Shown here in pieces: positions 55,363 through 61,247 of a stretch of DNA of 64,000 nucleotides. Location: positions 31,973 through 95,972 of the forward strand of contig NZ_MEDO01000004.1 in the NCBI RefSeq assembly GCF_001724815.1. The letters run 5' to 3'. This DNA is from Arenimonas sp. SCN 70-307. GTDB taxonomy: Bacteria > Pseudomonadota > Gammaproteobacteria > Xanthomonadales > Xanthomonadaceae. How positions within the stretch are numbered: position 1 is the stretch's first letter; each line of letters starts with the position of its first letter. Made by a program: the position numbers and the translations under genes. The notes beneath the pieces were generated by a model, which worked only from the letters and a program-made list of their open reading frames with translations, did not search any database and had not been told where the DNA came from.

Positions 55363-57324
55363 ATGTCCGAGCGCATCGTCCCCGTCCCCCCGGCCTTCGA
55401 GGCCGCCGCCGCGATAAAACGCGCCGACTACGAGCGTGGCTATGCCGAGTCGCTGCGCGACCCGGAGGCTTACTGGTCCAGGGTGGGCCGGCGGCTGCAG
55501 TGGTCGAAGCCCTACACGCGCGCCAAGGACACCAGCTACCGCCTCGAGGATTTCCACATCCGCTGGTTCGCCGACGGCGAGCTCAACGTCAGCGTGAACT
55601 GCCTGGACCGCCATCTCGCGGAGCGCGGCGACAAGGTGGCCATCGTCTGGGAGGCCGACGACCCGAAGACGCCGCCGCGGCGGATCACCTACCGCGAGCT
55701 GCACGCCATGGTGTGCAGGCTGGCCAATGCGCTCGAGGCCCTGGGCGTGGTCAAGGGCGACCGCATCACGCTCTACCTGCCGATGATCCCCGAGGCCGCG
55801 GTGGCCATGCTGGCCTGCGCGCGCATCGGCGCCATCCACTCGGTGGTGTTCGGCGGCTTCTCGCCCGATTCCATCGCCAACCGCATCGCCGACTGCGCCA
55901 GCAAGCTCGTCATCACCGCCGACGAGGGCCTGCGCGGCGGCAAGACCATCCCGCTCAAGGCCAACGTCGACGAGGCCCTGTCCAAACCCGGCACCAACAG
56001 CGTGGAAACCGTGCTGGTGGTGCGCCACACCGGCGGCGGCGTGCCCATGCAGATGCCGCGCGACCGCTGGTACGACGCCGTGGTGGACGCGCAGCCGGCC
56101 ACGCACGCGGCCAGGGCGATGAACGCGGAGGACCCGCTCTTCATCCTCTACACCTCGGGCAGCACCGGCAAACCCAAGGGCGTGCTGCACACCAGCGGCG
56201 GCTACCTGACCTGGGCCAGCTACACCCACGAGTGCGTGTTCGACCTCAAGGACGACGACGTGTTCTGGTGCACCGCCGACGTGGGCTGGGTGACTGGCCA
56301 CAGCTACGTCGTGTACGGCCCGCTGGCCAACGGCGCCACCACGCTGATGTTCGAGGGCGTGCCCACCTACCCCGACCCGGGCCGCTTCTGGGACGTGTGC
56401 GACCGCCACCAGGTGACGATCTTCTACACCGCGCCCACCGCCATCCGCGCGCTGATGCGCGAGGGCGACGCGCCGGTCAAGCGCAGCAAGCGCACGTCCA
56501 TCCGCCTGCTGGGCACGGTGGGCGAGCCGATCAATCCCGAGGCCTGGGAGTGGTACAACCGCGTGGTCGGCGAGGAGCGCTGCCCCATCGTCGACACCTG
56601 GTGGCAGACCGAAACCGGCGGCGTGCTGATCTCGCCGCTGCCCGGCGCCATCGCGACCAAGCCCGGTTCGGCCACCCTGCCTTTCTTCGGCGTGCAGCCG
56701 GCGCTGGTGGACGCGGAAGGGCGCGAGCTGCACGGCGCCACCGAGGGCAACCTGGTGCTCAAGGATTCCTGGCCGGGCCAGATGCGCAGCGTCTACGGCG
56801 ATCACCAGCGCTTCATCGACACCTACTTCAAGACCTACCCGGGCCTGTACTTCACCGGCGACGGCTGCCGCCGCGACGCCGATGGCTACTACTGGATCAC
56901 CGGCCGCGTGGACGACGTGATCAACGTCTCGGGCCACCGCATGGGCACGGCGGAAGTGGAAAGCGCGCTGGTCGCGCACCCGGCCGTGGCCGAGGCGGCG
57001 GTGGTGGGCGCGCCGCACGACATCAAGGGCCAGGGCATCTACGCCTACGTGACGCTCAAGGCCGGCATCGAGCCGACCGACGCGCTGCGCAAGGAACTCG
57101 TGCAGCACGTCCGGCACGAGATCGGCCCGATCGCCGCGCCCGACTGGCTGCAGTGGGCGCCGGGCCTGCCCAAGACCCGCAGCGGCAAGATCATGCGGCG
57201 CATCCTGCGCAAGATCGCCGAGGCCGGTCCCGAGGGCGTCGACCGCGGCACGCTGGGCGACACCTCGACGCTGGCCGATCCGGCCGTGGTGGACTCGCTG
57301 GTGCGCGAACGGCAGGTCCGCTGA
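55363..57324 (+). CDS. acs: Acetyl-CoA synthetase
   Basis: 653-aa AMP-forming enzyme activating acetate to acetyl-CoA. The ANL core is [20 protein letters not shown], with [10 protein letters not shown] (A5), [20 protein letters not shown] (hinge and A8), and the C-terminal acetylatable lysine in [11 protein letters not shown]. The propionate/acetate pocket tryptophan is in DTWWQTE. ATG 55363 has GGAG 10 nt upstream; earlier in-frame starts add a basic, Ala-rich stretch not seen in the family. It is divergent from the porin/symporter operon across two operator-like boxes and is followed after 2 bp by a response regulator. Confidence 0.95.
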
Positions 57325-57326
57325 GC

Positions 57327-57989
57327 ATGCCCAACACGCCCACCATCCTGGTGGCGGACGACCATCCGCTGTTCCGGGAGGCGCTCAAGGGCGCGGTGTC
57401 GAAACTGCTGCCGCAGGCGCGGCTGGTGGAGTCGGATTCGGCCGAAGGCCTGCTGGCCAGCGCCGAGGCCCACCCCGAGGCCGACCTGGTGCTGCTGGAC
57501 CTGAACATGCCCGGCGCGCACGGCTTCAGCGCGCTGGTGCACCTGCGCGCGGTGCAGCCGCAGCTGCCGGTGGTGGTGGTGTCGGCGCGCGAGGAGCCCA
57601 GCGTGGTGCGGCGCGCGCTCGAGCACGGCGCGGCCGGCTTCATCCCCAAGAGATCCGACCCGGCCACCATCCGCGCCGCGATCGCGGCGGTGCTCGACGG
57701 CGGCCAGTGGGCGCCCGTGCAGGCCGACGCCGCCGAAGGCCTGGCACCCGAGGAGGCGCGCGTGGCCGAGCGCCTGCGCGAACTCACGCCCCAGCAGTTC
57801 AAGGTGCTGGGCATGCTCGGCAGCGGCCTGCTGAACAAGCAGATCGCGCACGCGCTGGGCGTGTCCGAAGCCACCGTAAAGGCCCACATGACCGCCATCC
57901 TGCGCAAGCTGGGCGCCAGCAACCGCACCCAGGCGGTGCTGATGGCCGGCCGCCTCGCCGTCGACCCTGAACCAACCGAACCAGGTTGA
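57327..57989 (+). CDS. NarL/LuxR-type response regulator (CrbR/ErdR-like)
   Basis: 220-aa transcription factor. The receiver domain (1-125) has D10/D11 and the phosphorylated D58 (LLDLNMPG), T/S in VVVSAREE and K110 region IPKRSD. The LuxR helix-turn-helix is QQFKVLGMLGSGLLNKQIAH followed by ALGVSEATVKAHMTAILRKL. Homologues next to acs (CrbR, ErdR) activate acs with the kinase CrbS/MxtR; that kinase is not in the window. Its last residues (EPTEPG) and TGA stop are encoded by a RAYT-associated repeat (57978-57996), so the native C-terminus was probably altered. Confidence 0.85.
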   Translation: MPNTPTILVADDHPLFREALKGAVSKLLPQARLVESDSAEGLLASAEAHPEADLVLLDLNMPGAHGFSALVHLRAVQPQLPVVVVSAREEPSVVRRALEHGAAGFIPKRSDPATIRAAIAAVLDGGQWAPVQADAAEGLAPEEARVAERLRELTPQQFKVLGMLGSGLLNKQIAHALGVSEATVKAHMTAILRKLGASNRTQAVLMAGRLAVDPEPTEPG

Positions 57990-58015
57990 TTTTATCGAAC
58001 CAGGTTCATTTTATT
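57978..58015. repeat. Left inverted repeat pair of the RAYT element (family C)
   Basis: Two direct copies of a 19-bp unit: GAACCAGGTTGATTTTATC (57978-57996) and a two-mismatch copy (57997-58015). The first is an exact inverted match to 58830-58848 and 58861-58879 on the other side of the transposase gene. The left copy contains the stop of the acs-linked regulator (57987-57989); the right copy contains the stop of the transposase (58006-58008). Confidence 0.85.
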
Positions 58016-58710
58016 GCGCGGCGTCGGGTGGATTTGGGCCGGCCTCTGGCCCGCGTACTTGCCACCCGCCCGAGCAGCTGTCCGATCTGGAGTTGGAATG
58101 ACGGGCTACCCCAGGCGCGGCCCTGGTTGGTGCTGCGGGTGAGGGCATCGCGCTGCTGGTCGGTGATGCCTTCCGCAACAAGCGCCCTATAGGCGCGCCA
58201 CCGCTCGTTCGCGTCCGCCGCCAGCGCAAGGTAGACCGGGTGCGGCTGCACCAGCGGGTCGATCCTTCCCTGCGCATTGAAGTGATAGCTCGACCAGCGG
58301 TACATCCCCGGGTGCGGCACCATCCCCGCACGCACCGGGTTGAGTTCGATGTAGCGCTGGCAGGCCAGCAAGTAGTCGTCGGAGCCTACAAGGCAGGAGC
58401 GGAAGCGCCCCTCCCACAGCGTGCCGGTCCGCTGGTGGCAGGCGTTGAAGTACCTGACGTAGCGCGTGCCCAGCTGCTGCATCATCCGGCTGGTAGCCCC
58501 GTCCTCCTGCGGCGTGACCAGCAGGTGCACGTGGTTGGTCATCAGGACGTAGGCGTGGATGCGGCAGCCTGCCTGCTTCGCCGCCAGCGCCAGTTCGTCC
58601 AGGTATCTCCAGTAGTTGGCGCCGTGGACGAAGCAGGGGGCGCGATTCACGCCCCGCTGGATGATGTGGTTCGGGATGTGCGCGAGATCGAGTCGTGGGA
58701 TGGCGGGCAT
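58006..58710 (-). CDS. REP-associated tyrosine transposase (RAYT, Y1/IS200-like)
   Basis: 234-aa single-strand DNA nuclease. The Y1 fold is complete: PRLDLAHIPNHIIQRGVNRA at the N-terminus, the HUH histidines in HAYVLMTNHVHLL (H60, H62), and candidate nucleophile tyrosines in GTRYVRYFNA (Y84/Y87). The C-terminal extension (GRPKSTRRRAIK) is basic, as in RAYTs. ATG 58708-58710 is preferred to 58746 since family members begin M-P-x-x-P-R. The TGA stop is inside its own terminal repeat. It probably moves the family-C repeats; a link to families A, B and D is not shown. Confidence 0.9.
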   Translation of the reverse strand: MPAIPRLDLAHIPNHIIQRGVNRAPCFVHGANYWRYLDELALAAKQAGCRIHAYVLMTNHVHLLVTPQEDGATSRMMQQLGTRYVRYFNACHQRTGTLWEGRFRSCLVGSDDYLLACQRYIELNPVRAGMVPHPGMYRWSSYHFNAQGRIDPLVQPHPVYLALAADANERWRAYRALVAEGITDQQRDALTRSTNQGRAWGSPSFQLQIGQLLGRVASTRARGRPKSTRRRAIK

Positions 58711-58829
58711 GGCGCGGGCCTTGTGGCGGACCACCATTCCACTCAACGGCTCGGCCCGCCGGGCTCCGCCTTTTCATCAACGTGGCGTCGGCGCCAATCC
58801 CTTCCTGCCCCAAGAAACAAACCTGGTTG

Positions 58830-58879
58830 GATAAAATCAACCTGGTTCATTTGGTTCAGCGATAAAATCAACCTGGTTC
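58830..58879. repeat. Right inverted repeat pair of the RAYT element (family C)
   Basis: Two exact direct copies of GATAAAATCAACCTGGTTC (58830-58848 and 58861-58879), separated by 12 bp. The outer copy provides two bases of the TGA stop (58878-58880) of the next gene on the minus strand. Confidence 0.88.
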
Positions 58880-59333
58880 AGGCGAAGAACCCGAAGGTCT
58901 TCGAGGTCTCCGGTTCCGCCGCCCGCACCTGCTCCGAGAAAGCGCGGTAGAGCATCCAGGTCGAGTGCAGCGGGCTGCCATTGAGGCGGTTCTGCACCAC
59001 GTCGAAGGCGCCCAGCGCCACCTGGAAATTCGGCCCCGGGACCACCAGCACCGAGTGCTTCCCGGGCTCGAAGTAGGCGAAGTGGCCCCCGTGTTCGCGC
59101 CTTCCGACCTCCAGCACGTAACAACCAATGATGTTCACCAGCGCGTCGAACATTCCCTTGTCCATCTGGTCGCGGTGCGGCGAGAGATGGTCAATCACGG
59201 CATCAACCGCCCGAAGACTCTCGTGCGTATAGTCCCACTGCCCGGGCACCCTGCCCTGGAGTCGCTCGACCGCAAGCGCGGCATTGTGTTCGATGTTGGA
59301 CAAAAGGCTTCCCCTGGTTCGGTGAGTGCGCAT
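58878..59333 (-). CDS. Unknown protein, 3' end reshaped by the RAYT element
   Basis: 151-aa soluble protein with no signal or membrane helix. Helical at the start (LLSNIEHNAALAVERLQGRV), then a core with ALVNIIGCYVLEVGRREHGG and YFEPGKHSVLVVPGPNFQVA, which has the look of small immunity or DUF-type proteins, but I cannot name a family. The TGA stop is shared with the RAYT right repeat (58878-58880), so the last codons may have been replaced when the element inserted. A good -10, TATAAT, lies at 59365-59360 on the minus strand, 26 nt before the ATG. Confidence 0.6.
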   Translation of the reverse strand: MRTHRTRGSLLSNIEHNAALAVERLQGRVPGQWDYTHESLRAVDAVIDHLSPHRDQMDKGMFDALVNIIGCYVLEVGRREHGGHFAYFEPGKHSVLVVPGPNFQVALGAFDVVQNRLNGSPLHSTWMLYRAFSEQVRAAEPETSKTFGFFA

Positions 59334-59359
59334 GCGGGGGCGCCGGGCCCCGCGGCCGA

Positions 59360-59365
59360 ATTATA
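59360..59365 (-). promoter_or_regulatory. -10 box of the unknown gene 58878-59333
   Basis: Minus-strand TATAAT, a consensus -10, 26 nt upstream of the ATG at 59333. A GC-rich stretch between them (GGCCGCGGGGCCCGGCGC) can form a hairpin in the leader. No convincing -35 was found. Confidence 0.55.
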
Positions 59366-59387
59366 GCGGCACGCCCGAACACTGGCC

Positions 59388-61247
59388 TCAGGCCCACGTC
59401 CGCAGCGGCAGCAAACCCCAGGCTGCGAGCACCGCGCACCACTGCAGCACGCCGGCCATCGCCAGCGCGTCGGCCAGCTGCCAGCGCGAGCGGCGCGGCG
59501 CGCGCCAGGTCCGCCACAGCCCGACCCCCATGGCGACCGGCAGCAGCAGCGTCACCGCCGCCAGCAGGCCGCTGGCCACGGTCAGGTCGCCTATCGCCAG
59601 GAAGGATTGGCCGAAGAAGAATGGCACCGGCAGCGCCAGCAGCAGGATGCCCAGGCAAGGCGCCGCCAGCGGCTGCCGCCAGCGCGGACCCCCGCCGAAG
59701 GCCAGGCGCGGCACGCCGGCCAGCAGCAGCCAGCCCAGGCCAAGCAGGCCGGCGACCAGGCTGGACCACAGCGCCACCATCGCGGCCGTCGACGCCCGCG
59801 CATAGGTCTGCAGGCCGGTGCTGACCACCGGCCGGCCATCGTCGGCGACCGTCACCACATGCGAAGCGACAAGCCGGCCGGGTACGCGATAGCGCCCGCC
59901 GCCGAGCGGCTGCAGCACGATCGCGGGCGACTGGAAAGGCGCGAAGCGCAGGCCCCCGGGGGTCGGATCCACCCGCACGAAGTTCAGCGTCGTATCGATC
60001 CAGGCGAATCGCGCGAAACGGTTCGGCGCCGGGACGTAGAAACCCGCGGCGACCTCGCCCGGCGCACCATCGACGGCTGCCGGCTCGAACGGCGGCATCG
60101 CCAGCGACTCGACCAGCAAGCGGTCCACGCGCCCGTAATCGGCGCCTTCGTGGTCGGAATTGACGGCCGTGAAGAACGCGCTGCGTTGCGCCGGGAACAC
60201 GCACAACATCGCCTGGAAGCCCACCGTGCTGCCGCCGTGGCACTTGCCGACGGCCCCGTGCCGGTCGCGCGTCGCCATGCCCAGGCCGTAACCCACGGAC
60301 AGGCCGGCATCGGCGGCTTCGGTACCGACCGGCTGGCCCATCGCCGCCAGCAGGTCGGCGCGCACGAGCCTGCGGCCGTCGGCGGTGCCATCGCCCATCA
60401 GGAAGGCCGCCAGCCTCGCCATGTCGGCGGCCGTGGTGGTGAACTGCGTCGCCGGACGCAGCGGCGTCGGCACCGCCGCCTGCGTCTGGCCGCCCTCGAA
60501 GTGGCCCATCGCCACGCTGGCGTCGGCGCGCGGGCCCTCCTGCGTGGTGAAGTCGAAAGTGCTGCGATGCATGCCCAGCGGCTGCAGCAGAGTGCGTTGC
60601 AGGTAAGGCTCGTAGCGCTCGCCGGTGCTGGCTTCAAGCACCAGGCCGAGCAGGGCGTAGCTGGTGTTCGAGTACGAATGGCGGCTGCCCGGGCGGCTGC
60701 GCACCGCCAGCCGGCGACCTTGGGCGAACCCGCCGAGTGGCGCATCGGCGTCCGCCTCGAGGCTGAAGACGTCGGCCAGGCGCGCATCGTCCAGGCCGGC
60801 GCTGTGGTCGAGCAGGTGTCGCAGCCGCACCGGATCCGTTGCGGCCCAGGGGTTGTCGAAGTCGACCTGCGGCAGCAGGGTCGCGACCGGCGTTTCCAGG
60901 TCGAAGCGGCCTTCTGTCACCAGCTGCAGCACGCCGATGGCGAGCATCGTCTTGGCCACCGAACCGACGTGTACGCGGTCGTCGGCCGACAAGGCCTCGC
61001 CGCTGCGGGCATCGCGCACGCCGACGGCACCGGTGCGCGTGACGCCTTCGGCGTCGAGCGTGGACCAGACCAGGCCCTGCCAGCCCTGTTCGGCGACCAA
61101 CGACGACAGCGCGTCGTGCAGCGCCGGGTGCGGCCCGTCGTTGGCACGAGCCGGGGCCAGCGCCAGGAACAACGCCAACGCGGCCCCGAGGGCAGCCGCA
61201 CGGGCGGTCGAGGCGGGGGAAGATCCGATCATGGGCGGCTCCGGCAA
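59388..61247 (-). CDS. Exported beta-lactamase-fold serine hydrolase with membrane C-terminus
   Basis: 619-aa protein. A signal peptide (cut after about 35, ALAPARA-N) is followed by a class C beta-lactamase/PBP-like domain (about 40-400) with SVAK (S96, K99), YSN (Y192, N194) and HGG in place of KTG (KCHGGS, about 335). A second soluble part (about 400-470, FAWIDTTLNFVRVDPTPGGL) is followed by about four membrane helices (475-610). The class includes esterases, D-peptidases and envelope enzymes; HGG instead of KTG makes a true beta-lactamase unlikely. The start may be 61247 or the next ATG at 61232. Confidence 0.82.
   Translation of the reverse strand: MPEPPMIGSSPASTARAAALGAALALFLALAPARANDGPHPALHDALSSLVAEQGWQGLVWSTLDAEGVTRTGAVGVRDARSGEALSADDRVHVGSVAKTMLAIGVLQLVTEGRFDLETPVATLLPQVDFDNPWAATDPVRLRHLLDHSAGLDDARLADVFSLEADADAPLGGFAQGRRLAVRSRPGSRHSYSNTSYALLGLVLEASTGERYEPYLQRTLLQPLGMHRSTFDFTTQEGPRADASVAMGHFEGGQTQAAVPTPLRPATQFTTTAADMARLAAFLMGDGTADGRRLVRADLLAAMGQPVGTEAADAGLSVGYGLGMATRDRHGAVGKCHGGSTVGFQAMLCVFPAQRSAFFTAVNSDHEGADYGRVDRLLVESLAMPPFEPAAVDGAPGEVAAGFYVPAPNRFARFAWIDTTLNFVRVDPTPGGLRFAPFQSPAIVLQPLGGGRYRVPGRLVASHVVTVADDGRPVVSTGLQTYARASTAAMVALWSSLVAGLLGLGWLLLAGVPRLAFGGGPRWRQPLAAPCLGILLLALPVPFFFGQSFLAIGDLTVASGLLAAVTLLLPVAMGVGLWRTWRAPRRSRWQLADALAMAGVLQWCAVLAAWGLLPLRTWA

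What the first reader, a model, noticed from the sequence alone, without database searches (positions are those of the whole stretch)
57978..58880. RAYT gene within terminal inverted repeats, with three stop codons supplied by the repeats
Exact 19-bp inverted repeats, doubled at each side, bound the transposase. The 19-mer contains TGA in one direction (GGTTGA) and in the other (TGAACC). The acs-linked regulator, the transposase and the unknown gene 58878-59333 all stop inside these repeats. The element seems adapted to insert at gene ends without extending the proteins. Most RAYTs are described as single-copy domesticated genes without such ends.
Basis: partly seen in the sequence, partly recalled or inferred. 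Interest (0 to 1): 0.7.

Follow-up and report, generated by a model that had tools for sequence, protein, structure and literature searches.

The report
Transposase palindromes that fit stop codons
In a bacterium likely of the genus Arenimonas, a single-copy transposase gene is flanked by inverted repeats that recur across the genome as small palindromes, many of which have their ends exactly on the stop codons of neighbouring genes; they are likely miniature mobile elements spread by this transposase, a variant of a known kind.

Summary
A Y1 (HUH) transposase gene of the RAYT type (likely 58006-58710, minus strand) lies between multiplied AACCWGGTT inverted repeats; its own stop and both neighbours' stops lie inside them. 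The 902-bp unit is single-copy, but the repeat recurs at 17 further sites that I read in this genome, and its 14-mer in 6 of 27 genus genomes, those with the transposase or a trace of it at one old site beside acs and its regulator. What looks new is the precision: of 75 stop codons close to the repeats, 46 start at exactly two positions (23 at -2, 23 at -11 from the repeat's AACC, where the repeat carries TGA); no other position holds more than 3. A hold-out genome agrees (14 of 29). At one convergent pair a neighbour's stop is TAA in 6 of 6 genomes without the element and TGA in 3 of 3 with it; at other sites the native stop is merely abutted. Mobility and target choice are inferred. New variant of a known kind.

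The parts
57327..57989 (+). LuxR-type response regulator beside acs; its last residues (EPTEPG) and its TGA (57987-57989) are repeat sequence
   Evidence: tails of relatives
57967..58014 (+). left terminal inverted repeat: outer CTGAACC (57967-57973), units GAACCAGGTTGATTTTAT (57978-57995) and GAACCAGGTTCATTTTAT (57997-58014)
58006..58710 (-). RAYT-type Y1 (HUH) transposase, 234 aa from the ATG shared with relatives (open frame to 58746); HUH motif NHVHL, Y in QRYIELNPV (motif assignment recalled); stop TGA 58006-58008 in the repeat
58815..58859 (+). right terminal inverted repeat, partner of 57967-58011 (89% complementary)
58860..58880 (+). extra right-hand unit CGATAAAATCAACCTGGTTCA, exact partner of 57978-57997; carries the stop (TCA on +) of the gene to the right
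58878..59333 (-). gene of unknown function (151 aa as listed), found in 1 of 27 genus genomes; TGA 58878-58880 in the repeat

Best explanation
A RAYT-type HUH transposase gene lies between palindromic AACCWGGTT repeats and likely spreads miniature copies of them to gene ends, where the TGA trinucleotides carried by the repeat coincide, at two fixed positions, with the stop codons of many neighbouring genes. Shown: the repeat family is dispersed, its 14-mer is confined to 6 of 27 genus genomes, the repeat carries TGA at -2 and -11 from its AACC core, and stops of facing genes pile up at those two positions. Shown at one site (C): a neighbour's TAA in 6 of 6 genomes without the element is TGA in 3 of 3 with it. 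Inferred: the transposase cuts and joins the single-stranded palindromes as its REP-bound relatives are thought to do; new units survive at gene ends because the protein still ends there; units that hit coding sequence are lost. Also inferred: because a unit is a palindrome with TGA at one end and TCA at the other, it can fit between two converging genes and serve as the stop of both.
For: Dispersed family with control 0. Repeat type goes with the transposase clade and the old acs-regulator site. Stop register: of 75 facing stops within -40..+30 of the repeat, 23 at -2 and 23 at -11, no other position above 3. TGA at -11 in 37 of 130 ends against a mean of 1.0 at other positions, and in 14 of 107 ends that do not use it as stop. 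TGAACC is the stop hexamer of 37 of 81 facing genes and of 2 of 201 other genes in the same stretches. Hold-out G017: 8 at -2 and 6 at -11 of 29 in range, background 1 of 79. Filled and empty pairs at site C. Both arms agree in the variable S letter in 36 of 41 paired elements.
Against: No movement, cutting or binding was tested. At sites A and B relatives without the element already have TGA there, so the element abuts rather than supplies the stop; at D and E in G008 and G017 the stop is TAA or TAG beside the element. 29 of 75 stops, and 15 of 29 in G017, are out of register. In G008 22 repeat clusters exist although the transposase of this clade was not found there. G006 lacks the exact 14-mer but has a degenerate copy at site B, so co-occurrence is not strict. 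Orthologous sites are counted more than once in the first set.
Confidence: 0.72

Rival explanations
1. Selection alone: units land anywhere, convergent gaps in these genomes are only a few bases wide, so tolerated insertions are necessarily close to stops, and the TGA in the unit acts as a stop by chance of reading frame.
For: Empty convergent gaps at site C are a few bases. Other TIR families in the genus also sit between converging stops, ending in TAA or TAG.
Against: Two exact positions hold 46 of 75 stops, and 14 of 29 in the hold-out. Among stops lying at or inside the repeat (offset -2 or more) 23 of 35 and 8 of 12 in G017 use one frame, where random frames would give about a third.
Confidence: 0.2
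2. The palindromes are host hairpins (terminators or mRNA ends) kept and copied between gene ends by recombination or template switching; the transposase is a resident or domesticated gene that no longer moves them.
For: Single, vertically inherited transposase locus; broken copies in G003 and G017; at site A the palindrome encloses a terminator-like core where relatives have a bare one; strong predicted folding.
Against: The repeat type tracks one transposase clade and is absent elsewhere in the genus by the 14-mer; sites are filled in some species and empty in close relatives.
Confidence: 0.15
3. An ordinary insertion sequence of about 0.9 kb that transposes whole.
For: Layout of one gene between inverted ends.
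Against: Single copy in the genome; same site in G000, G012, G014 and G003.
Confidence: 0.03

Closest known systems
TIRYT / TIRtron (Di Nocera, De Gregorio and Rocco 2013, PMC3733652; section 16 and passages seen)
   Same: RAYT-like Y1 transposase gene between long inverted repeats that are not GTAG REPs; repeats partly or wholly self-complementary; repeats dispersed in the genome as a moderately abundant family; repeats may overlap the gene's 3' end.
   Different: Most TIRs there share GGGGWSAS; here the core is AACCWGGTT. The two fixed TGA registers on neighbours' stops are not described in what I saw of that paper.
RAYT / REPtron with GTAG REPs (Nunvar 2010, PMC2817692; abstract and passages)
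   Same: Single-copy gene between inverted palindromic repeats with many dispersed copies; coevolution of gene and repeat. PMC3733652 reports that GTAG REP ends often provide a TAG stop to flanking ORFs.
   Different: No GTAG or GTGG foot on these repeats; the stop is TGA, at two positions.
REPIN (Bertels and Rainey 2011, PMC3116915; passages)
   Same: Inverted doublets of short palindromes around a spacer, with changes on both arms that keep the hairpin.
   Different: Other repeat sequence; here single palindromes are also common, above all in G017.
REP near stop codons acting on translation (Liang, Rudd and Deutscher 2015; only seen as a reference, paper not held; content recalled)
   Same: Palindromes at stop codons.
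   Different: There an effect on translation, as I recall; no effect was tested here.

Membership tests
TIRYT / TIRtron | RAYT-like Y1 (HUH) transposase | tested here: met
   PF01797 E=1.5e-12 above its cut-off; 4er8 TnpAREP E=0.0017; NHVHL and QRYIELNPV in the sequence
TIRYT / TIRtron | gene between inverted repeats unrelated to GTAG REPs | tested here: met
TIRYT / TIRtron | TIRs may belong to a dispersed repeat family (not in all members) | tested here: met
TIRYT / TIRtron | GGGGWSAS motif in the TIR (shared by some, not defining) | tested here: not met
   the second transposase at C10 has a GGGGTCAGG repeat
TIRYT / TIRtron | C-terminal helix-turn-helix domain of subclass 2.1 (PMC6006769) | tested here: inconclusive
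   Pfam found only Y1_Tnp in three genus transposases even at E up to 5
TIRYT / TIRtron | single-strand cutting and movement of the repeats by the transposase | not testable with these tools
   needs biochemistry
RAYT / REPtron (GTAG) | NCBIfam NF047646 REP_Tyr_transpos at its cut-off | tested here: not met
   74.3 bits against a cut-off of 80, E=9.1e-21: a near relative
RAYT / REPtron (GTAG) | GTAG or GTGG at the foot of the palindrome | tested here: not met
   sequence of the repeats
IS200/IS605-type insertion sequence | mobile as a whole, several copies | tested here: not met
   one full-length copy; same site in relatives
REPIN | inverted doublets predicted to form hairpins with compensatory arms | tested here: met
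   41 of 65 clusters are paired this way; 36 of 41 agree in the S letter

The most novel reading that the evidence does not exclude
The stop codon itself is the landing site: the transposase inserts its palindrome directly after (C)TGA, so each copy keeps or rebuilds a TGA stop on one side and, through the palindrome's mirrored end, on the other, turning convergent gene pairs into stop-to-stop hairpins without changing the proteins. GTAG REPs that end genes with TAG would be the same trick with another stop codon.
Probability: 0.28. Interest if true: 0.72.

Novelty: new variant of a known kind. Interest (0 to 1): 0.5.

Why it matters
If the register is a target rule, it would explain how RAYT-type elements persist in dense genomes: they land where proteins already end. 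It gives a testable reason why REP-like repeats crowd at gene ends, and a set of natural sites, empty in one species and filled in another, for measuring what a hairpin at converging stop codons does to termination and mRNA.

Tried and rejected
Searching named genomes with the transposase gave no relative. Rfam gave nothing at gathering thresholds in 56000-61000. A first look at stops by open frames and a first count with a GC3-based gene caller (33 TGAACC of 72) were replaced by a codon-usage caller, because the GC3 caller missed known genes such as the regulator. The first arm-pairing script (in one search, five pairs) was too strict and was redone (41 pairs, 24 clusters without a pair). CTGA as target: C precedes the -11 TGA in 27 of 37 ends, but codons of this GC-rich genome often end in C, other repeat families of the genus sit at TAA or TAG stops, and sites D and E in G008 and G017 lack it; kept only as the novel case. 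Whole-unit insertion sequence: rejected. A design with stops in all three frames: only some copies would have it (for example C4:9739), rejected as a rule. The uniform null (best two positions together at most 13 in 20000 draws, 46 observed) ignores orthology and is illustrative only.

Sampling: only part of the known sites was fetched. G014: four places listed were not fetched as stretches (C140, C172, C178, C221:30197; C172 was seen as site B), and its list there was cut; G012: C101 was seen only as site C; G003: one of two sites; G017: all places. Four lone AACCWGGTT palindromes of G000 were fetched (L117-L120) and not analysed. The G000 site at C14:524973 was too divergent for my pattern and is not in the counts. 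Clusters inside called genes were left out of the stop counts: 2 in the first set, 5 in G017. One offset (L109 right, +14) is an artefact of my outermost-AACC rule, which caught an AACC inside the gene; the same holds for L434 right in G017. The regulator script did not read G003, G010 and a second G011 locus.

Full report
What is there. The window lies at G000:C4:31973-95972. A transposase gene of the RAYT type (minus strand, likely 58006-58710) lies between inverted repeats. PF01797 matches at E=1.5e-12, NCBIfam's RAYT model scores 74.3 against a cut-off of 80, and the only solved relative by sequence is TnpAREP, 4er8, E=0.0017. The regulator on the left, the transposase and the gene of unknown function on the right all end in TGA inside the repeats.

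One gene, many repeats. The 902-bp unit occurs once; the next best DNA match, at C10, is 68% identical over 426 bases and is another transposase with other repeats (GGGGTCAGG type). The repeat is dispersed: 42 hits with up to one mismatch, control 0; 59 AACCNGGTT palindromes against 7 in the control. Fifteen fetched stretches gave 16 clusters outside the transposase locus, one of them inside a called gene, and a further divergent site lies at C14:524973. Over five genomes 41 of 65 clusters are inverted pairs of units around a core; the variable letter S agrees on both arms in 36 of 41; inner arms match their own partner at 62% (32 elements) and those of other elements at 34%. Changes on both arms that keep the hairpin are known from REPINs (PMC3116915, passages).

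History. The exact 14-mer is found in 6 of 27 genus genomes: G000, G003, G008, G012, G014, G017. In G000, G012, G014 and G003 a transposase of this clade sits beside the same regulator, in G017 beside acs, and in G008 only TGAACCTGGTACC is seen at the regulator's stop. G003's copy is matched in two overlapping pieces of different frames and G017's in two pieces. In five genomes without the 14-mer whose regulator end was read (G005, G006, G011, G015, G026) no repeat is there; the other 16 were not read. G006 nevertheless has a degenerate AACC palindrome at site B. Transposases with AACC repeats group together (97/98 for four rows, 75/60 with the G003 fragment; 8 of 15 inner branches of that tree are weak). 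So this is an old, vertically inherited locus whose repeat type goes with the gene.

Stop codons in register. I called genes by codon usage trained on 25 long open frames of the window and measured each facing stop's first base from the first A of the outermost AACC. In 65 clusters (G000, G003, G008, G012, G014) there are 82 facing 3' ends; 75 lie within -40 to +30, of which 23 are at -2 and 23 at -11; no other position has more than 3. TGA is at -11 in 37 of 130 ends, against 1.0 on average at positions -57 to -12, and in 14 of 107 ends that do not use it as stop, so it belongs to the repeat. TGAACC is the stop hexamer of 37 of 81 facing genes within 200 bases and of 2 of 201 other genes in the same stretches. 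As a hold-out I then fetched every listed place of G017: 8 at -2 and 6 at -11 among 29 in range, no other position above 2, background 1 of 79. Orthologous sites are counted more than once in the first set (for example L113, L393, L400), so its numbers are not independent events.

Orientation. Of 63 clusters outside called genes in the first set, 26 lie between two 3' ends, 27 have one 3' and one 5' end, 7 lie between two 5' ends and 3 are incomplete or far. Counting one more with a distant stop, 9 of 27 convergent elements have both stops in register, 12 one, 6 none. G017: 13 convergent, 14 mixed, 3 divergent, 5 inside called genes, of 35.

Empty and filled sites. Site C (C15:37990): the right-hand gene ends in TAA in 6 of 6 relatives without the element and in TGA in 3 of 3 with it (G000, G012, G017); the left-hand stop is TAG in 5 and TGA in 2 of 7 without it, and TGA in 4 of 4 with it. 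In G017 the insert there is a 31-base palindrome, TGA at one end and TCA at the other. Against a general supply of stops: at site A eight relatives without a palindrome of this kind, and at site B six of seven, already have TGA at that codon (G010 has TAG), so the element follows the native stop; at D and E in G008 and G017 the stop is TAA or TAG with the element beside it. At the regulator the element gives the last codons and the stop. So the repeat sometimes supplies and sometimes abuts the stop.

Shared places. At site D the same gene end holds an AACC-type palindrome in G000, G014, G008 and G017, and in G026 a GGGGTCAGAGTG palindrome, the repeat type of G026's own transposase; G003, G004, G006 and G011 are empty there. 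At sites A and E some relatives hold GTAG- or GTGG-footed palindromes (G008; G014 and G004). At site A the palindrome of G000 encloses a terminator-like core, where G001, G002, G003, G023 and G026 have a bare terminator-like hairpin. I had no control gene pairs, so how unusual this sharing is remains open. Of ten other transposase loci of the genus, six have the stops of both neighbours within 10 bases of, or inside, their repeats, with TAA and TAG as well as TGA: sitting between converging stops is not special to this family, while the two TGA registers were measured only for it.

Reading. The closest class is TIRYT/TIRtron (PMC3733652, section 16), later placed mainly in subclass 2.1 (PMC6006769, section 20). 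That GTAG REP ends provide stop codons is in print (PMC3733652, passage). I found no description of two fixed TGA registers for TIR repeats in what I saw; the searches were made, of an open-access library only, and one search found two papers with the words TIRYT or TIRtron, of which I read sections and passages. Movement by the transposase, TGA as target, and any effect on termination are inferred.

Noticed in passing
G000:C10:17331-18029 (L062): A second RAYT-type transposase in the same genome, 46% identical, with doubled GGGGTCAGGTTCACTT repeats; the left neighbour's TAA overlaps the repeat's edge.
   Followed up: partly
L042, L044, L045, L051, L053, L062: Other TIRtrons of the genus, with several repeat types, also sit between converging stop codons (6 of 10 loci within 10 bases on both sides).
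   Followed up: partly
L154 (site A, G000:C2:152650-152728): The palindrome encloses an A-tract/GC-stem/T-tract terminator-like core; relatives without the repeat have a bare terminator-like hairpin at the same gene junction.
   Followed up: partly
L339 (site D in G026) and L337, L343 (site E in G014, G004): The same gene ends hold palindromes of different families in different species.
   Followed up: partly
G012 (L156, L222, L394, L395): Assembly gaps (NN) lie in the middle of long palindromes, so such elements may be under-counted in short-read assemblies.
   Followed up: no
window 58878-59333: The right-hand gene is found in 1 of 27 genus genomes; five homologues exist in the protein database, without Pfam domain.
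   Followed up: partly
window about 58010-58060, minus strand, and relatives: An RGRP or GRP motif like an AT-hook (motif recalled) recurs near the C-terminus of many genus transposases.
   Followed up: no
   Followed up: no
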